This document shows positions 1 through 13,722 of a stretch of 39,473 bases of DNA, one piece after another. Below the pieces are notes generated by a model, which saw only the letters and a list, made by a program, of their open reading frames with translations, did not search any database and had not been told where the DNA came from. The position numbers were made by a program, and so were the translations under genes. How positions within the stretch are numbered: the stretch's first letter is position 1; each line of letters begins with the position of its first letter. Origin of the DNA: Deinococci bacterium (GTDB lineage: Bacteria; Deinococcota; Deinococci; Deinococcales; Trueperaceae); NCBI GenBank assembly GCA_030149325.1, contig JASBRS010000043.1, forward strand, positions 1 through 39,473, in the 5' to 3' direction.

Positions 1-1
1 C

Positions 2-1393
2 ATCGGGTTCGTCTCGGTGATCCGGCCGGCCTTCAAGGGCGACGGCGCCGCGGCCGCGCGGCGCAGCCTCGACGGGCTCGCCGGCCTCGCCGACGAGCTG
101 GGGTTCGAGCTCGTCGACCTGGGCCGTGCGGTGACCGACGCCCGCGAGGCGGAACGGGCGGCGGCGGAGCTAGCCGAGCGCGAGCTCGACCTGCTGATGG
201 TGCAGCACACGACCTTCGCCACCGGCGACGTGGTCGCGCCGCTGCTGCGCGCGGTCCGCCAGGTGGGCGTGTGGGGCCTGCCCGAGAGCGCGGGCGGCGG
301 CAGCGCGCGCGGCCCGCTCCCGCTCAACTCCCTGTGCGGACTGAACATGACGCTGTCGCTGCTCGACGCACCTCAGGTGGCCAAACACGAGAGCGTCAAG
401 TGGTTCTACGGAGACGTCGCCAGTCCCGGCTTCCGGCGCCGTCTGGCGCCCACCGTGGCCGCCCTGCGCGGGCTGAGGGCGCTGGCAGGGGCGCGGGTCC
501 TGGCCATCGGAGGGACGGCTCCCGGCTTCTACGGCATCGAGGACGTGCCCGCGCTGGACGGCGTCGAGGTCGTCCGGCGGGAGCTCGACGAGCTGTTCGC
601 CCGGACCGCCGCCGTGGATCCCAGCCAGGCCGAGGCCAGGGCGGCGAGCTGGGCGCGCGGCGAGGCCACCGACCTGACGCAGGAGCAGCTCGTACGCGGC
701 GCCCGGATCGACGTGGCGCTCGAGGCCATGGCGCGCGACGCCGAGGCGGACGCCCTGGCGGTGCGTTGCTGGCCGGAGCTCCCGGATGCCTGCGGGTCGA
801 TGGCCTGCGCGGCCATGGGCGAGTCCGGTGCGCGCGAGGTGCCGGCCGCCTGCGAGGGGGACGTCATGGGGGCGCTGTCGATGCTCGCGCTCCAGGGGGT
901 GACCGGCGCCCCCGCGCTGTTGATGGACCTGTCGGACGTCGATGAGCGCGACGACAGCCTGTTGGTGTGGCACTGCGGCAACGCCCCCCTGGCGTGGGCG
1001 TCGGCGGCCCCCGACGGCTCGCCCGCCTCCCGCCTCACCACCCACTTCAACCGGGACGGCGTCGGGGTCGTACGCGACATGAGGTTGCGGGAGGGCTCCG
1101 TGAGCGGCTACCGGCTCCTGGCGGGGGGCCGCCGGGCGGTGGTGGCCGGCGGACGCGTTCTGGACCCCGAGAAGGCGGCCTTCGATGGCGTGAGCGGCTG
1201 GATCGATGCCCTGAGCTGGGCCGAGACGCCGGTCACCGCCGCGGGCTTCGTCGCCAACATCCTCGACCGGCGGGTCCCGCACCACCTGGCCTTCGGGTCC
1301 GGGGACGTGGTGGGAGCGTTGCTCGAGCTCAGCGCCTACCTCGGGGCCGAGGTCCTGCCCGCGCTGCCCGAGAGCGCGATCCTGCGACCGTGA
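2..1393 (+). CDS. L-fucose/L-arabinose isomerase-family sugar isomerase (5' end outside window)
   Basis: The protein resembles the COG2407-type fucose/arabinose isomerase family, which interconverts aldoses and ketoses with a divalent metal. The frame is already open at base 2 and reads IGFVSV before the GTG at 17. That is a typical N-terminal first beta strand, so the true start lies a few codons left of the window. The C-terminal half carries family features: PAACEGDVMGAL with the acidic residue expected to bind metal, a following LLMDLSDVD, and WHCGNAP with the conserved His. Length (about 460 residues) fits the family. The stop overlaps the next gene's GTG, so it is translationally coupled to a sugar kinase and an aldolase. 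The exact sugar cannot be read from sequence; a sulfoquinovose-type substrate is suggested only by the neighbours. Confidence 0.8.
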   Translation: MGFVSVIRPAFKGDGAAAARRSLDGLAGLADELGFELVDLGRAVTDAREAERAAAELAERELDLLMVQHTTFATGDVVAPLLRAVRQVGVWGLPESAGGGSARGPLPLNSLCGLNMTLSLLDAPQVAKHESVKWFYGDVASPGFRRRLAPTVAALRGLRALAGARVLAIGGTAPGFYGIEDVPALDGVEVVRRELDELFARTAAVDPSQAEARAASWARGEATDLTQEQLVRGARIDVALEAMARDAEADALAVRCWPELPDACGSMACAAMGESGAREVPAACEGDVMGALSMLALQGVTGAPALLMDLSDVDERDDSLLVWHCGNAPLAWASAAPDGSPASRLTTHFNRDGVGVVRDMRLREGSVSGYRLLAGGRRAVVAGGRVLDPEKAAFDGVSGWIDALSWAETPVTAAGFVANILDRRVPHHLAFGSGDVVGALLELSAYLGAEVLPALPESAILRP

Positions 1394-2310
1394 GCCGCGC
1401 GCGGCTGCTGGCCGTCGGGCTGTCGTGCCTCGACCACGTCTGGCGCGTGGAGCACTTCCCTCCGTTGGCCTCGCGCACCGACGCCCGCGCCTACCACAGC
1501 CAGGGGGGCGGTCCGGCCGCCACCGCCGCGGTCGCGGCGGCGCACCTGGGGGTCGAGGCGGCCCTGGTGGCGCTCCACGGCGACGACGCCGCGGGCGACG
1601 CCGCGCTCGCGGACCTGGCGGCGCACGGGGTGCGCGTCGAGGGCGTGCGCCGCATCGAGGGCGCGGCCACCTTCGTGAGCGCCGTGCTCGTCGCCCCCGA
1701 CGGCGAGCGCTGGATCTTCCCCTACCGCGGTAGCGGGCTGGTCGACGACCCCGCCTGGCTCGAGGGCAGCGCTCCCGAGGACGCTTCGGTGGTGCTGATC
1801 GACCTGCGGCACCCGAAGCTGTGCCGGGCCGCCGCCGAGCGCGCCCGCGCGGCCGGCGTCCCGGTGGTGGCCGACTACGGCAACCTCAGGTCCTGGGAGG
1901 ACGCGCACCTGGCCGATCACCTGTTGGTGGCGCGCGAGTGCGCGGCGGAGTTGCTGGGCAGGGACGATCCCGAGGTCGCCCTGGGGCGTCTGCGGCAGCG
2001 GCCGGGGCAGGTGGTGGGGATCACGCTCGGTGCCGAGGGCCTGCTGATGCTCGACGGCGAGCGGCGCCTGAAGGTCCCCGCACCCCGCGTCGACGCGGTC
2101 GACACCACCGGTGCCGGCGACGTGTTCCACGGTGCCTACGCCGCGGGCATCGCCCGCGGGATGAATGCCGAAGGGGCCGCGCGCTACGCCGTGGCCGCGG
2201 CTGCCCTGGCGTGTCGGACCTTCGGCGCGCGCCGCGGCCTCCCCGACGACGCGGAGGTGAGGGCCCACCTGGCCCGACGGACCCCCGACCGGACCGGACC
2301 CCAGGCATGA
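1390..2310 (+). CDS. PfkB/ribokinase-family sugar kinase, YihV-like
   Basis: This 306-residue kinase should phosphorylate the ketose made by the upstream isomerase with ATP. The GTG start overlaps the previous stop (GTGA). PfkB signature 1 is seen as GGGPAATAAVAAAHLG (residues about 38-53) and signature 2 as DTTGAGDVFHGAY, with the catalytic Asp at 244. Both resemble E. coli sulfofructose kinase YihV as I remember it. The Arg in VLIDLRH aligns with a YihV Arg, and a basic Arg sits where YihV has its N-terminal-domain Lys, but the YihV Asn in its INYP segment is replaced by Pro. The substrate may therefore be sulfofructose, another ketose or a related sugar acid. The PfkB assignment is firm; the substrate is inferred. 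Confidence 0.88.
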   Translation: MSRARLLAVGLSCLDHVWRVEHFPPLASRTDARAYHSQGGGPAATAAVAAAHLGVEAALVALHGDDAAGDAALADLAAHGVRVEGVRRIEGAATFVSAVLVAPDGERWIFPYRGSGLVDDPAWLEGSAPEDASVVLIDLRHPKLCRAAAERARAAGVPVVADYGNLRSWEDAHLADHLLVARECAAELLGRDDPEVALGRLRQRPGQVVGITLGAEGLLMLDGERRLKVPAPRVDAVDTTGAGDVFHGAYAAGIARGMNAEGAARYAVAAAALACRTFGARRGLPDDAEVRAHLARRTPDRTGPQA

Positions 2311-2359
2311 CGCGCAAGCGCGCGTGCCCGAACGAGATGGGAACGATGGAGGCAACGAG

Positions 2360-3427
2360 GTGAGCGACGTGCTCAGTGCAGGCAAGCTGCGAGGGATGAT
2401 GACCCTCGCCGACGACGACGGTGTGTTCCGGATGGTGGCGGTCGACCAGAGGCCCCCGCTCTTCGCAGCGCTGACGCGCCACGACGGGCGCGACCCCGGC
2501 GGTCTCGGCTTCGACGAGGTCGCGCGCGCCAAGACGTTGCTCGCGCGGGTGCTGGCGCCGGAGGCCGGAGCCATCCTGATCGATCCGGTGTGGACGCACC
2601 CCAGCGCGCTCATGGCGGTGCCGGGGCGCACCGCCGTCATCAGCACGCTCGAGGACTACGGCTTCGACGAGGTCGCCGGCGAACGGCGCTCGCACACCAT
2701 CGAAGGCTGGAGCGTGGCGGCGGCCAAGCGTGCGGGAGCGTCGGCCATCAAGCTCCTCGCCTGGTACCGTCCCGACGCCTCGGGGGCCACCCGGGCGCAC
2801 CAGGAGGCGCTGGTGGCGGAAGTGGGGGAGGCGTGTGCGCGCCACGACCTGCCGTTCATCCTGGAGTTGCTCGTCTACCCCCTGCCCGGGGAGGACGCCG
2901 CGTCGGCCGAGTACCAGGCGCGTCGCCCCGAGCGGGTGCTCGAGTCGGTGCGGCGGTTCGCCGACCCGCGCTTCGGCGTGGACGTGTACAAGCTCGAGTT
3001 CCCGGCCGACCTCAAGTTCTGTCGCGGCTACCACGCCGGGGCGTTCGACGGCCGCGAACGGCCGGCGCTGTTCGCCCTCGACGAGGTGCGGAGCTGGCTC
3101 GCCGACCTCGATGCCGCCACCCCCGCACCCTGGGTGCTGCTCAGCGCCGGCGTCGGGGCCGACGAGTTCGAGGTGGACCTCGAGCTCGCCTACCGTGCCG
3201 GCGCCAGCGGTTTCCTGGCCGGACGCGCGGTGTGGCTGGAGGCGTTCGAGGCCTACCCCGACGTGGAGGCGGTGGAGGCCCACCTGCGCCGCCGCTCGGT
3301 CCCCTACCTGCGCGCCCTGGCGGCGCGAGCGGCGACCGCGCTGCCCTGGCACGCGCACCGGCGCTTCGGGGCGGCACCGGAGCTGGAGGGCGCCGGGGAG
3401 GGCTGGCACCGGAGGTACGGAGCGTGA
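2360..3427 (+). CDS. Class I aldolase of the LacD/YihT family
   Basis: This 355-residue TIM-barrel aldolase of the tagatose-bisphosphate / sulfofructose-phosphate aldolase family should split the phosphorylated ketose into two three-carbon units. The GTG at 2360 is chosen because GGAGG lies at 2348-2352, seven bases upstream. Family motifs are FRMVAVDQR near the N-terminus, IKLLAWYRPD (Lys131), DVYKLEFPADLK with the likely Schiff-base Lys211, PWVLLSAGV, and AGASGFLAGRAVW, which should bind phosphate. All have close counterparts in YihT. It follows the kinase by 49 bases and overlaps the next gene by four. LacD-like and YihT-like substrates cannot be separated from motifs alone. It is slightly longer than E. 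coli YihT because of a C-terminal extension. Confidence 0.85.
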   Translation: MSDVLSAGKLRGMMTLADDDGVFRMVAVDQRPPLFAALTRHDGRDPGGLGFDEVARAKTLLARVLAPEAGAILIDPVWTHPSALMAVPGRTAVISTLEDYGFDEVAGERRSHTIEGWSVAAAKRAGASAIKLLAWYRPDASGATRAHQEALVAEVGEACARHDLPFILELLVYPLPGEDAASAEYQARRPERVLESVRRFADPRFGVDVYKLEFPADLKFCRGYHAGAFDGRERPALFALDEVRSWLADLDAATPAPWVLLSAGVGADEFEVDLELAYRAGASGFLAGRAVWLEAFEAYPDVEAVEAHLRRRSVPYLRALAARAATALPWHAHRRFGAAPELEGAGEGWHRRYGA

Positions 3428-4470
3428 GCGTCGGGCGCGACCGGTTCGGGGTGGTGGTGGTCGGCGCGGGCGACATGGGAGCCCGCCACGCGCGCTGGTG
3501 GGCGGCGACCGGTGCCGAGGTGGTGGCCGTGGCCGACCCCGACCCGGTGCGGGCGCAGGCGCTGGCGGAGGCGCACGGAGCGCTGGCCCTGCCGGACCCC
3601 GGCGACGCCTTCGCCCGCGACGACGTCGACGCGGTGTCGGTGTGCACGCCCACCTACCTCCACCGCGGCTTCGTGGTGGCCGCGCTGAACGCCGGCAAGC
3701 ACGTGCTGTGCGAGAAGCCGGTGGCCCTGACCGGGGCCGACGCCGAGGCCATGCGCGCGGCGGCCGAGCGCAGCTCGGGGGTGCTGCGCATCGGCTTCAT
3801 GCGGCGCTTCGACCCGGCCGACGCGACCCTGGCCGGCTACGTCCGAGAGCTGGGACGGCCGATCCTGGCGCAGGCGACCATCACCGCCGGCGTGCGGCCC
3901 AAACGCCTGATGCACGACGCCAACGCCAACGGCGGGCCCCTCATCGACATGTGCTGCCACGTCTTCGATCAGTGGGAGCGGTACTTCGGCGGGCCACCCG
4001 AGCTCGTCCGCGCCAGCGGCCACACCTTCGCCCGCGGCAAGCCCGGGGTCGCCGGGATCGAGGAGCTGGCGGTGGACAGCGCGCAGGTGACGCTGCGCTA
4101 CCCGGGCGGCGACGAGGGGCACGTGCTGGTGTCGTGGGGGCTGCCGTCGGGCGTGCCGGCGACCGAGCAGCACACCTACCTCGGCCCGGACGGGAGGGTC
4201 GCGTCGGCGTGGCCCGACGACGTGCAGCTGCAACGCGGCGGGGAGGCGCTGCGGTGGCTGCCGCCCCCCGCCGACCCGTGGCGTGAGGAGATCGCGGCCT
4301 TCCGCCGGGAGCTGGCCGGGCTCGAGCCGCGCAGGCTGGCCGACATCGACGAAGGCATCCGGGCCCTGCGCACCTCCCTGGCGGCGCTCGTCTCCATCGC
4401 CGAGGGCCGCGAGGTGGGGTTGAGCGAGTTCGGCCCGCCTCCGGGCGGAGCCGAGCCGGAGGCGTCGTGA
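3424..4470 (+). CDS. Gfo/Idh/MocA-family NAD(P)-dependent protein 1
   Basis: This 348-residue protein has a Rossmann domain starting at FGVVVVGAGDMGARHA (dinucleotide loop GAGDMG), the family hallmark CEKPVAL near residue 98 with the catalytic Lys, and a C-terminal alpha/beta domain with NGGPLIDMCCHVFDQW, the usual Asp/His motif. Family members oxidise or reduce sugar hydroxyls. Some (GH109, GH188) use NAD transiently to cleave glycosides. The GTG start overlaps the aldolase stop (GTGA), placing it in the sugar operon. It could open the pathway by releasing the sugar from a glycoside, or epimerise or oxidise the sugar. A real choice between these is not possible from sequence. Confidence 0.85.
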   Translation: MSVGRDRFGVVVVGAGDMGARHARWWAATGAEVVAVADPDPVRAQALAEAHGALALPDPGDAFARDDVDAVSVCTPTYLHRGFVVAALNAGKHVLCEKPVALTGADAEAMRAAAERSSGVLRIGFMRRFDPADATLAGYVRELGRPILAQATITAGVRPKRLMHDANANGGPLIDMCCHVFDQWERYFGGPPELVRASGHTFARGKPGVAGIEELAVDSAQVTLRYPGGDEGHVLVSWGLPSGVPATEQHTYLGPDGRVASAWPDDVQLQRGGEALRWLPPPADPWREEIAAFRRELAGLEPRRLADIDEGIRALRTSLAALVSIAEGREVGLSEFGPPPGGAEPEAS

Positions 4471-5516
4471 GCGCGGCGGCCGGCTCCGAGCGCCTGGCGG
4501 CGCTGCGGGTCGGAATCGTCGGCGGCGGTCGCTGGGCCGGGGTGCACCGGCAGGCGCTCGAGCGGCTGGGCGTGGGCGTCGAGGCCGTGCTGGTGCGCTC
4601 CCTCGAGACGGCCGAGCGTCTGCGCAGCACCTGGCAGGTGGCGACCACCACCGAGCTCGACGCCTTCCTGGCGAGCGGGCTCGACGCCGTGATCGTCGCC
4701 AGCCCCAACTACCTCCACGCCGAGCACGCCGCGGCGGCGCTCGACGCCGGCCTCCACGTCTTGGTCGAGAAGCCGATGGCCATCGACCTGGCCGGCTGCG
4801 ACCGGGTGCTGGCGGCGGCCGAGCGCAGCCGCAAGGTGCTGGCGGTGGGGCACGAGATGCGGGTCTTCGGATGGCTCGAGGCGCTGCGCGACGAAGCGAG
4901 CGGGCTGGGCCGGCCGGTCCACCTCGACCTGCGGCTGTTCCGGCGCCCCTACCGCTCCGGGGCGTCGGGGTGGAAGCAGGACCCGGCCAAGCTCGGCAGC
5001 AGCGTGTTGGAGGAGCCCATCCACTACCTCGACCTGGCGCGCTGGCTGCTCGGGGAGGTGCGCGAGGTGCAGGCGTGGGCCACCAGTCGACCGGGTCGGG
5101 AGGGGCTGCACGAGAACCTGGACGTGCGCCTGGTGTTCGACGACGGCGCCGAGGCCCTGGTCACCCGCACCATCGCCGGCTTCGAGCACCACGTGGCGTG
5201 CGATCTGGTGGCCGAGGGCGGCGCCGTGCGCGCCCGCTGGGACGGACGCCAGGACACCGACGAGGCGCCGTCGGTGGCGCTCACGGTCCAGGCCGGCGAG
5301 GGCGTGCGCGAGGTGGCGGTGCCGCAGCAGAGCGGCCACGCCTTCGACGTACCGCGCCAGACCGAGGCCTTCCTGCGCGCCGTCGTCGACGGCACGCCGG
5401 TGGCCGCCGACGGTCGCGACGGCCGCACGGCGGTGGCCCTGTGCCTGGCCGTCGAGCGTTCGTTGCGGCAGGGGTCGCGCCCCGTCCCGCCCGAGAGCGG
5501 CGCGGGTCCCGGCTAG
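4467..5516 (+). CDS. Gfo/Idh/MocA-family NAD(P)-dependent protein 2
   Basis: A second, clearly different family member of 349 residues, coupled to the first by a GTGA overlap. The N-terminal nucleotide loop is GIVGGGRWAGVH, the Lys motif is VEKPMAID, and the C-terminal domain carries EEPIHYLDLARW with the His/Asp pair expected for catalysis. The two proteins share only family motifs, so they probably perform different steps or form a hetero-oligomer rather than being a recent duplication. This is the last gene of the plus-strand sugar operon. Its stop lies only seven bases from the convergent stop at 5524, and no terminator fits between them, so the two transcripts must overlap. Confidence 0.85.
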   Translation: MSAAAGSERLAALRVGIVGGGRWAGVHRQALERLGVGVEAVLVRSLETAERLRSTWQVATTTELDAFLASGLDAVIVASPNYLHAEHAAAALDAGLHVLVEKPMAIDLAGCDRVLAAAERSRKVLAVGHEMRVFGWLEALRDEASGLGRPVHLDLRLFRRPYRSGASGWKQDPAKLGSSVLEEPIHYLDLARWLLGEVREVQAWATSRPGREGLHENLDVRLVFDDGAEALVTRTIAGFEHHVACDLVAEGGAVRARWDGRQDTDEAPSVALTVQAGEGVREVAVPQQSGHAFDVPRQTEAFLRAVVDGTPVAADGRDGRTAVALCLAVERSLRQGSRPVPPESGAGPG

Positions 5517-11986: not shown

Positions 11987-12727
11987 TCAGCCAGCGCGAT
12001 GCGCGGGGCGTTCGCCCAGCCCGATCGCCACCGTCGAAGCCACCAGCACGTCGGTGGAGTTGACCAGCGGCAACCCCAGGCCCTCGGCGTCCAGCACCTC
12101 CTGCGACAGCACCAACGGCACCTCGGTGCACCCGGCCACCAGGACCTGCGCACCGGCCTCGGCGAGCAGGCGGGCGAGGCGCAGCATCCCGGCACGCACG
12201 GTGTCGCCGGTGTCCCCCGCCTTGATGGCGTACATCAGCTCCATGAAGACGTCGCGGTCCTCGCCCTCGGGGACCACCACGACGACGTCGTGGGCCGCGA
12301 ACGCCCGCTGGTAGAGGCCGGCGTCGAGCGCGCCCTCGGCGGCCAGCACCCCCACGCAGCGCACCTCGGGGCGGCTGGCCAGCGTGGCCTGCACCGTCTC
12401 GTCGACGATGCTCACGAAGGGGACCGTCACGGCCTCCTCGATGGCGTCCTGGAAGGCGTGGGCGGCGTTGCAGACCATCACCAGGAAGTCGGCCCCCGCC
12501 CCTTCGAGCCGCCGCGCCATGGCCGCCAGCTCCGGGGCCGGCGACGGACCCCGCCCGGCCACGGCGTCGTTGCGGTCGGGGACTCCCGGGTCGACGTCGA
12601 GGATCAGATGCAGGTGCTCCTGGTCGCGGACGGCCGGCGTCGCGGCCAGGACCTTGGCGAAGAAGTCGAGCGTGGCGGCCGGTCCGAGCCCCCCGAGGAC
12701 GCCGACCACCCGGCGCGCGGAGGTCAT
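11987..12727 (-). CDS. Aspartate/glutamate racemase-family protein
   Basis: A 246-residue cofactor-independent racemase of the Asp/Glu/hydantoin racemase superfamily. Both catalytic cysteines are present: Cys86 in MVCNAAHAF and Cys200 in VAGCTEVPL. The N-terminal GVLGGLGPAATLDFF is the typical first strand and loop. Members of this branch (RacD, YgeA) interconvert L- and D-amino acids, sometimes with broad specificity. The ATG overlaps the stop of the D-cysteine desulfhydrase-like gene (ATGA), so the two enzymes are co-translated and probably act on the same or linked amino acids. The 166-base gap to the next minus-strand gene holds the lrp promoter. Confidence 0.88.
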   Translation of the reverse strand: MTSARRVVGVLGGLGPAATLDFFAKVLAATPAVRDQEHLHLILDVDPGVPDRNDAVAGRGPSPAPELAAMARRLEGAGADFLVMVCNAAHAFQDAIEEAVTVPFVSIVDETVQATLASRPEVRCVGVLAAEGALDAGLYQRAFAAHDVVVVVPEGEDRDVFMELMYAIKAGDTGDTVRAGMLRLARLLAEAGAQVLVAGCTEVPLVLSQEVLDAEGLGLPLVNSTDVLVASTVAIGLGERPAHRAG

Positions 12728-13722
12728 CCCAACAACACCTCCTGGTAGGCGTAGAGCGCGGGGGAGCCGCCGGTGTGCACGAACAGCACGTTGTCGTCGC
12801 GATCGAAGCGGCCACGACGTACCAGGTCGATGAGTCCGGCCGCCGCCTTGCCGGTGTAGACGGGGTCGAGCAGCACCCCCTCGAGCGACGCGAACAGCCG
12901 CACCGCCTCGATCATGGCGTCGGTCGGCAGCGAGTAGCCGGGGCCGACGTAGTCGTCGAGCACGGTGACGGCCTCCGCCGGGATCGCGGCGGACGCCCCG
13001 GCCAGCGACGCCGTGCGCCGTGCCAGGTCGAGGATCTTCTCCTCCTGGGTGCCCTTCTCGGCGCGCACGCTGATACCGGTGAGGGGGATGCCGGCGCTGG
13101 CCCCCACCACCCCGGCCACCAGGCCCGCGTGCGTGCCGCCGCTACCGCTGGCGGTGACGATGTGGTCGAGGCGCAGCCCCATCTCGAAGGTCTGCCCCAG
13201 CAGCTCCTCGGCGCAGGCCACGTAGCCGAGGGCGCCGAGTGGGGTGGAGCCGCCGCCGGGGATGACGTAGGCGTGACGGCCGTCGGCCTCGAGCTCGTCG
13301 GCCTCCCGCTGCATGGCAGCGGCGAGGTCGCTGCCGCCCTCCACCACCGTGACCTTCTCGACGTCCAGCAGGCGGTAGAGGAAGTTGTTGCCGCTGGCCT
13401 CGGGGTCGTAGCTTCCCGGCACGCGCTGCTCCAGCACCAGGCGGCACGCCAGGCCCTCGCGCACCGCCGCCGCCAGCGTCAGGCGGCAGTGGTTCGACTG
13501 CACCGCGCCGGTGGTGACGAGGGTGTCGGCGCCCTGCGCCAGGGCGTCGGCCACCAGGAACTCCAGCTTGCGCGTCTTGTTGCCACCGGCCGTGAGGCCG
13601 AGCTGGTCGTCGCGCTTGATGAACAGGTTGGGGCCGCCCAGGTGCGCGCTGAGGCGCTCGAGCGGTTCGATCGGGGTCGGGTACGGCGTGTAACGGCGCC
13701 GCGGGAAGCGAGCGAGATGCAT
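12724..13722 (-). CDS. D-cysteine desulfhydrase-like PLP enzyme (ACC deaminase family)
   Basis: A 332-residue fold-type II PLP enzyme. The cofactor Lys is Lys49 in GGNKTRKLEF and the conserved catalytic-loop Ser is Ser76 in VQSNHCRL. The phosphate-binding region ASGSGGTHAG and the VGPGYSLP segment are intact. The sequence is close to D-cysteine desulfhydrases, which release pyruvate, sulfide and ammonia. L-cysteate sulfo-lyase (CuyA) and ACC deaminase belong to the same family and are alternatives. The start ATG has GGAGGT eight bases upstream (13731-13736). It is first in the operon, overlapping the racemase gene. Together they could feed D- or L-amino acids to pyruvate. Confidence 0.87.
   Translation of the reverse strand: MHLARFPRRRYTPYPTPIEPLERLSAHLGGPNLFIKRDDQLGLTAGGNKTRKLEFLVADALAQGADTLVTTGAVQSNHCRLTLAAAVREGLACRLVLEQRVPGSYDPEASGNNFLYRLLDVEKVTVVEGGSDLAAAMQREADELEADGRHAYVIPGGGSTPLGALGYVACAEELLGQTFEMGLRLDHIVTASGSGGTHAGLVAGVVGASAGIPLTGISVRAEKGTQEEKILDLARRTASLAGASAAIPAEAVTVLDDYVGPGYSLPTDAMIEAVRLFASLEGVLLDPVYTGKAAAGLIDLVRRGRFDRDDNVLFVHTGGSPALYAYQEVLLG

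What the first reader, a model, noticed from the sequence alone, without database searches (positions are those of the whole stretch)
1..5516. Isomerase-kinase-aldolase operon resembling sulfoglycolysis, in a possible Deinococcota host
Seen: a fucose/arabinose-isomerase-family protein, a PfkB kinase with YihV-like GGGPAATAAV and DTTGAGDVFHGA motifs, a YihT/LacD-type class I aldolase (VAVDQR, Lys211, GASGFLAGRAVW) and two Gfo/Idh/MocA proteins, closely spaced and mostly overlapping. Known: E. coli uses YihS-YihV-YihT for sulfoquinovose, and actinobacterial EMP-type variants use a different isomerase, with a Gfo/Idh/MocA-fold NAD-dependent sulfoquinovosidase described nearby. Inferred: this is a sulfoquinovose route or a parallel route for another aldose. 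The YihV residue set is only partly kept (a basic residue and Arg kept, Asn changed to Pro), so a new substrate is equally possible.
Basis: partly seen in the sequence, partly recalled or inferred. Interest (0 to 1): 0.72.

Follow-up and report, generated by a model that had tools for sequence, protein, structure and literature searches.

The report
Sulfosugar breakdown operon in Deinococcota bacterium
A bacterium of the Deinococcota (family Trueperaceae) carries a transporter-and-enzyme operon that most likely breaks down sulfoquinovose, the very abundant sulfur-containing sugar of plant and algal membranes, and its phylum shares this operon widely although the papers searched do not mention it.

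Summary
In detail: five closely packed genes at 1-5516 encode an arabinose/fucose-isomerase-fold isomerase (cut by the contig start), a PfkB kinase, a class I aldolase and two Gfo/Idh/MocA oxidoreductases. The neighbouring contig adds a LacI regulator and a sugar ABC importer. The host is a Trueperaceae genome (Deinococcota). The sulfoglycolysis reading is well supported, mainly by context. The same transporter-isomerase-kinase-aldolase order recurs in Thermaceae, where it sits with sulfolactate sulfo-lyase SuyAB, two sulfolactate-dehydrogenase candidates and either a GH188 sulfoquinovosidase with an intact sulfonate-binding motif or a GH31. SuyB or the SlcC-type dehydrogenase occurs in 40 of 46 isomerase-positive genomes of the phylum and 1 of 65 others. 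The window itself holds cysteate racemase and D-cysteate sulfo-lyase genes; the genome has SuyAB elsewhere. The kinase's closest structure is E. coli sulfofructose kinase YihV. Corrections: the aldolase is not a YihT orthologue; the Gfo proteins are not GH188; the changed kinase residue (Asn to Pro) is shared by Thermaceae clusters with GH188, so it does not argue for a new substrate. No sulfolactaldehyde dehydrogenase lies in the operon. It is a hybrid variant of the known sulfo-EMP kind. The role of the Gfo pair is open.

The parts
1..1393 (+). Isomerase (SqvD/SftI-like, arabinose/fucose-isomerase fold), 5' end cut by the contig start; start codon 26 bases to the left on contig C22
   Evidence: (NF048012 SftI 131 bits)
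1390..2310 (+). PfkB kinase of the YihV (sulfofructose kinase) group; GTG start overlaps the isomerase stop
   Evidence: 7ag6 150 bits; TM 0.90, 37% identity
2360..3427 (+). Class I aldolase of the PRK12858/8tnf group, Schiff-base Lys211; predicted sulfofructose-1-phosphate aldolase (upstream start 2324 possible)
   Evidence: (PRK12858 308 bits, cut-off 184)
3424..4470 (+). GFO1, Gfo/Idh/MocA oxidoreductase, not GH188; basic GVRPKR stretch where GH188 binds sulfonate
4467..5516 (+). GFO2, Gfo/Idh/MocA oxidoreductase, not GH188; RRPYR stretch and EEPIH
11987..12727 (-). Cysteate racemase CuyB (context; likely downstream sulfonate metabolism)
   Evidence: NF052483 262 bits, cut-off 190
12724..13722 (-). 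D-cysteate sulfo-lyase CuyA (context; releases sulfite)
   Evidence: NF052482 529 bits, cut-off 450

Best explanation
The operon encodes a hybrid sulfo-EMP route for sulfoquinovose (SQ). A sugar ABC importer (on the adjoining contig) brings in SQ or an SQ glycoside. The isomerase turns SQ into sulfofructose, the YihV-like kinase makes sulfofructose-1-phosphate, and the class I aldolase splits it into dihydroxyacetone phosphate and sulfolactaldehyde. GFO1 and GFO2 probably prepare SQ glycosides by NAD-dependent oxidation and reduction, filling the place of a sulfoquinovosidase. Sulfolactaldehyde is then oxidised to sulfolactate by an aldehyde dehydrogenase encoded elsewhere, and sulfite is released by SuyAB or, through sulfopyruvate and cysteate, by CuyA/CuyB. 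Shown: genes, families, operon structure, conserved context, presence of CuyAB and SuyAB. Inferred: substrate, every reaction, the role of the Gfo pair, and which dehydrogenase and desulfonation branch is used.
For: The kinase's best solved match is YihV, by sequence (150 bits; next 99) and by fold (top 8 hits, TM 0.90), and it groups with YihV apart from ribose, KDG and fructose-1-phosphate kinases. The best NCBIfam model of the isomerase is SQ isomerase SftI, and relatives of the isomerase lie in classic sulfo-EMP2 clusters with YihQ in Bacillus taeanensis and Alicyclobacillus. The ABC-isomerase-kinase-aldolase block is conserved in Trueperaceae, Thermaceae and Deinococcus peraridilitoris. 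In Thermaceae it follows SuyA, SuyB, SlcC and ComC genes, and Meiothermus/Calidithermus copies have next to it a GH188 with R..L.K and EKCCH intact. Co-occurrence in 111 genomes of the phylum: SuyB 26/46 isomerase-positive against 0/65, SlcC 39/46 against 1/65; by genus, either one 12/15 against 0/16, p = 3e-6. Own genome: CuyA and CuyB in the window, GntR-2-hydroxyacid dehydrogenase-SuyAB on C3, a 61% identical relative of a Thermaceae cluster aldehyde dehydrogenase on C7.
Against: No sulfolactaldehyde dehydrogenase or reductase lies in the operon, and the C7 candidate stands beside unrelated genes and could be an ordinary succinate-semialdehyde dehydrogenase. The own genome lacks the SlcC orthologue and ComC. 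The aldolase is closer to LacD than to YihT. The YihV Asn109 is Pro here. Neither GH31 nor GH188 is in the operon. Non-sulfonate-context kinases (Phyllobacterium, 2rbc) nest in the wider YihV group. CuyA is a trait of nearly the whole family, with or without the operon. All of this is homology and context; no activity was measured.
Confidence: 0.8

Rival explanations
1. The operon degrades another C6-sulfonated sugar (for example sulfofucose, sulforhamnose or a sulfonated glycoside other than the SQ type) by the same isomerase-kinase-aldolase logic.
For: Isomerases of this fold are flexible (own knowledge); GFO1/GFO2 replace the known sulfoquinovosidases only in Trueperaceae; the aldolase is not a YihT.
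Against: Transporter, isomerase, kinase and aldolase are orthologous to Thermaceae clusters that have GH188, a family whose characterised members act on SQ glycosides (PMC10755693). Known sulfofucose breakdown runs by a different, ED-type pathway (PMC12421959).
Confidence: 0.1
2. The operon degrades a non-sulfonated sugar, such as a 6-deoxyhexose (quinovose, fucose, rhamnose) or a ketohexose by a tagatose-type route; the sulfonate genes belong to separate pathways.
For: NCBIfam names the aldolase subfamily tagatose 1,6-diphosphate aldolase; Asn109 changed to Pro; CuyAB is family-wide regardless of the operon; six isomerase-positive genomes have neither SlcC nor SuyB.
Against: SuyB/SlcC co-occurrence and physical linkage in the same gene order in Thermaceae; the adjacent GH188 has the sulfonate motif; basic residues at the YihV K27 and R138 positions are kept in all Deinococcota copies examined.
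Confidence: 0.08
3. GFO1 and GFO2 belong to inositol or other polyol oxidation, and the five genes serve two pathways.
For: The best NCBIfam model of both is myo-inositol dehydrogenase IolG (122 and 95 bits, cut-off 355).
Against: Far below the IolG cut-off; both are translationally coupled to the aldolase and kept in this order in the Trueperaceae loci whose contigs reach that far; no other inositol genes were seen in the windows examined.
Confidence: 0.1

Closest known systems
Sulfo-EMP pathway of E. coli (YihS-YihV-YihT-YihU)
   Same: Same three-step chemistry; the kinase is a YihV-group enzyme.
   Different: Isomerase fold and aldolase group are different; no YihU, YihQ or YihR; importer is an ABC system instead of YihO.
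Sulfo-EMP2 of Firmicutes (SqvD-SqiK-SqiA)
   Same: The isomerase is of the SqvD/SftI family.
   Different: Kinase is PfkB instead of the SqiK (PFK/PFP) type; aldolase is class I instead of class II.
Actinobacterial GH188 Y160 cluster (IMCC26103; PMC11465081) and the Thermaceae clusters found here
   Same: Fucose-isomerase-type enzyme, SF kinase, SFP aldolase, ABC importer, and downstream PGDH-type dehydrogenase and SuyAB.
   Different: Trueperaceae lack GH188 in the operon and have GFO1/GFO2; the desulfonation genes are unlinked or replaced by CuyAB.
Hybrid sulfo-EMP/EMP2 of Vibrio (PMC13372026)
   Same: Shown by experiment that enzymes of the two pathways can be mixed.
   Different: Vibrio mixes EMP enzymes with SqiA; here the mix is SqvD-type isomerase, YihV-type kinase and PRK12858-type aldolase.
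GH188 NAD-dependent sulfoquinovosidase SqgA (8qc2)
   Same: Gfo/Idh/MocA fold, probable NAD use, basic residues in the aligned sulfonate loop.
   Different: About 23-25% identity only; the motif R..L.K and EKCCH is missing.

Membership tests
YihV-type sulfofructose kinase | Nearest relative YihV in sequence, fold and tree | tested here: met
YihV-type sulfofructose kinase | Sulfonate-binding residues K27, N109, R138 (from the finding and my own knowledge of the YihV structure) | tested here: inconclusive
   R, P, R; shared with Thermaceae clusters that have GH188
YihV-type sulfofructose kinase | Activity on sulfofructose | not testable with these tools
   needs enzyme assay
YihT sulfofructose-1-phosphate aldolase | Orthology with YihT | tested here: not met
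   69 bits to YihT against 258 to 8tnf; groups with 8tnf, near LacD
SqvD/SftI sulfoquinovose isomerase | NCBIfam NF048012 cut-off of 700 bits | tested here: not met
   131 bits, only hit; distant member of the same superfamily
SqvD/SftI sulfoquinovose isomerase | Arabinose/fucose isomerase fold with invariant acidic and histidine residues | tested here: met
   E285, D309, H324, H348, H428 invariant in 15 sequences
GH188 NAD-dependent sulfoquinovosidase | Sulfonate motif R-x-x-x-L-x-K and E-K-C-C-H in GFO1 or GFO2 | tested here: not met
Sulfo-EMP pathway (hybrid) | Isomerase, kinase and aldolase in one operon with an importer | tested here: met
Sulfo-EMP pathway (hybrid) | Sulfolactaldehyde reductase or dehydrogenase in the cluster | tested here: not met
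   only an unlinked ALDH on C7; present in D. peraridilitoris, one Thermaceae and proteobacterial clusters
D-cysteate sulfo-lyase CuyA / cysteate racemase CuyB | NCBIfam equivalog cut-offs | tested here: met
   529/450 and 262/190 bits
(R)-sulfolactate sulfo-lyase SuyAB | SAF-domain small subunit next to UxaA-type large subunit in sulfonate context | tested here: met
   activity not testable

The most novel reading that the evidence does not exclude
GFO1 and GFO2 form a new, non-GH188 oxidoreductive sulfoquinovosidase system: one oxidises C3 of a sulfoquinovoside so that the aglycone leaves, the other restores the hydroxyl, and both bind the sulfonate through their conserved RPKR / RRPYR stretches. 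This would be a further way, after YihQ-type GH31 and GH188, to open SQ glycosides, in a phylum not known to use them.
Probability: 0.35. Interest if true: 0.65.

Novelty: new variant of a known kind. Interest (0 to 1): 0.52.

Why it matters
Sulfoquinovose is made on a scale of about ten billion tons a year, and recent reviews and surveys list its degraders in Pseudomonadota, Actinomycetota, Bacillota and a few others. If right, Deinococcota, from Meiothermus in hot springs to Trueperaceae in other sites, are sulfosugar degraders that can also release the sulfur as sulfite inside one cell. The enzyme combination differs from both textbook sulfo-EMP versions, so homology searches with YihS/YihT or SqiK/SqiA miss it. 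The sets also point to two untested candidates for glycoside opening: the Gfo pair and a GH31 without the YihQ motif.

Tried and rejected
GH188 membership of GFO1/GFO2: rejected on motif and identity. CuyA as operon-specific evidence: weakened, since 33 of 39 family genomes have it with or without the isomerase. GH31 of the related clusters as ordinary YihQ: rejected, it lacks Q262, Q288, R301, W304 and Y508. Aldolase as YihT orthologue: rejected. Identity of PDB 8tnf: no paper found; its relatives lie in Shinella and Neorhizobium operons with a YihV-like kinase, and in Shinella also with an SSADH and a TSUP transporter. Sulfonate genes in the 20 kb left of the window: none seen apart from the importer and regulator; GGDEF/EAL protein, MFS, AlaS and TRAP-type genes. 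ComC in the own genome: none found. A lyase partner (AP_endonuc_2) near GFO1 exists in G099 and Chlorohelix, but only a weak hit exists in the own genome.
Full report
What is there. The window is contig C9 of a 3.04 Mb draft genome (96.8% complete). Its first 141 bases repeat exactly the end of contig C22, which looks like an assembly-graph overlap, and no other contig shares them. Joined, the + strand reads: LacI regulator, sugar-binding protein, two permeases, isomerase, kinase, aldolase, GFO1, GFO2. Kinase, GFO1 and GFO2 each start with a GTG that overlaps the previous stop codon, so the genes are very probably one transcript. Named relatives place the host in Trueperaceae, phylum Deinococcota.

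The enzymes. The isomerase has no Pfam or PDB sequence match; its only NCBIfam match is the sulfoquinovose isomerase SftI, far below cut-off. A confident model (pLDDT 92.9) has the L-arabinose/L-fucose isomerase fold. The kinase is a PfkB protein whose nearest solved relative is E. coli sulfofructose kinase YihV, by sequence and by model comparison (TM 0.90, 37% identity, top eight hits). The tree joins it with YihV and keeps it apart from ribokinase, KDG kinase and 1-phosphofructokinase, though two kinases without sulfonate context nest in the proteobacterial half. The aldolase is a class I enzyme with the Schiff-base lysine, but it belongs to the PRK12858 group with PDB 8tnf, near LacD, not to YihT. 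GFO1 and GFO2 are Gfo/Idh/MocA proteins about 36% alike over part of their length.

Context in the phylum. The isomerase query matched 52 of 111 phylum genomes, and 46 of these hold a close orthologue. In Thermaceae the block ABC-isomerase-kinase-aldolase is preceded by a divergent GntR gene and by SuyA, SuyB, an SlcC-type and a ComC-type dehydrogenase. In Meiothermus and Calidithermus a GH188 homologue stands close by on the other strand and keeps the sulfonate motif R..L.K and EKCCH of the characterised enzyme (PMC10755693). In the Thermaceae loci L067 and L068, the LSA4 bin and D. peraridilitoris its place is taken by a GH31; D. peraridilitoris and one Thermaceae genome also have an SSADH-type aldehyde dehydrogenase in the cluster. 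SuyB occurs in 26 of 46 isomerase-positive genomes and none of 65 others; the SlcC-type enzyme in 39 of 46 against 1 of 65; by genus, either one in 12 of 15 against 0 of 16 (p = 3e-6). Related genomes are not independent, so the genus figure is the fairer one, and even that is not corrected for the tree.

Context in the window and its genome. Trueperaceae lack GH31 and GH188 in the cluster and have GFO1 and GFO2, often with an M24-family gene between them, followed by a convergent SlcC-type gene in many members. In G084 and G099 CuyB and CuyA follow directly. The window's own genome lacks the SlcC orthologue, but has CuyB and CuyA 6.5 to 8.2 kb from the operon, both above their curated cut-offs, and on contig C3 a GntR, a 2-hydroxyacid dehydrogenase, SuyA and SuyB (63% identical to the LSA4 copy), a Gfo protein and a TctA-type transporter. 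Its best relative of the cluster aldehyde dehydrogenases is on C7 beside a phytoene-desaturase-like gene. CuyA is nearly universal in the family, so its nearness alone proves little.

Kinase residue. The finding noted that YihV Asn109 is Pro here. The same Arg/Pro/Arg set is found in the Thermaceae kinases examined, except for Arg in the LSA4 bin and in D. peraridilitoris, and marine proteobacterial relatives beside SuyAB keep Lys/Asn/Arg. Since the Thermaceae operons stand beside SuyAB, and in Meiothermus and Calidithermus also beside GH188, the change is compatible with a sulfonated substrate.

Gfo proteins. Both align to GH188 at about 23-25% identity and lack its motif. At the aligned loop GFO1 has an invariant G[VI]RPK and GFO2 RRP[YH]R, and GFO2 keeps a glutamate four residues before the catalytic histidine. 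A GFO2 relative with RFPYR and LEEPVH lies in a Rhodospirillales isomerase-aldolase cluster that also lacks GH31 and a true GH188. The pattern YihQ-type GH31, other GH31, GH188, or Gfo pair looks like one slot filled in different ways; that GFO1/GFO2 open SQ glycosides is inference.

Known work. Sulfo-EMP, sulfo-EMP2 and hybrids of them are described (PMC12890257, PMC13372026). An actinobacterial cluster with fucose isomerase, SF kinase, SFP aldolase, GH188, PGDH and SuyAB has been published as a possible new pathway (PMC11465081). In the library searched I found no paper that links sulfoquinovose breakdown with Deinococcota; most subscription papers are not in it. I therefore file the finding as a new variant of a known kind, in a phylum for which I found no report, with an open question on the Gfo pair.

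Noticed in passing
L030:16999-19185; also L067, L068, L069, L107, L110, L111, L123, L128, L135, L154: A GH31 close to alpha-xylosidase models recurs in SuyAB/isomerase clusters of many phyla but lacks all five YihQ sulfonate-motif residues; Q262 and Q288 are replaced by Arg/Lys and Arg throughout. Possible unrecognised kind of sulfoquinovosidase.
   Followed up: partly
L038:14558, L041-L043, L048-L050, L052 (between GFO1 and GFO2); L030:7403-8464; L069:14778; L142:15718: An M24-family (Xaa-Pro peptidase-like) protein of unknown role recurs in sulfoglycolytic clusters, including a classic sulfo-EMP2 cluster of Bacillus taeanensis.
   Followed up: no
L158:14892-18081 (own genome, contig C3): Downstream of SuyAB and a TctA-type transporter lie a fumarate-reductase/adenylylsulfate-reductase-like flavoprotein, a 4Fe-4S protein and an LVIVD-repeat protein; possibly sulfite handling.
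   Followed up: partly
window 11987-13722: Cysteate racemase and D-cysteate sulfo-lyase, next to an AsnC-type regulator and a peptide-type ABC transporter: a cysteate catabolism locus; CuyA is found in nearly all Trueperaceae genomes examined.
   Followed up: partly
L164:9078-15243 (Shinella sp. HZN7 plasmid): Operon with a 44% YihV-like kinase, 8tnf-type aldolase, SSADH and a TSUP transporter but no sugar isomerase; alcohol dehydrogenase and SDR genes instead. May be a related sulfosugar route.
   Followed up: no
L033:128-4636 (Zymomonas mobilis plasmid pZZM402): Class II aldolase, epimerase, SqvD-like isomerase and a GH188 on a 34-kb plasmid: a likely sulfoquinovose cluster in Zymomonas.
   Followed up: no
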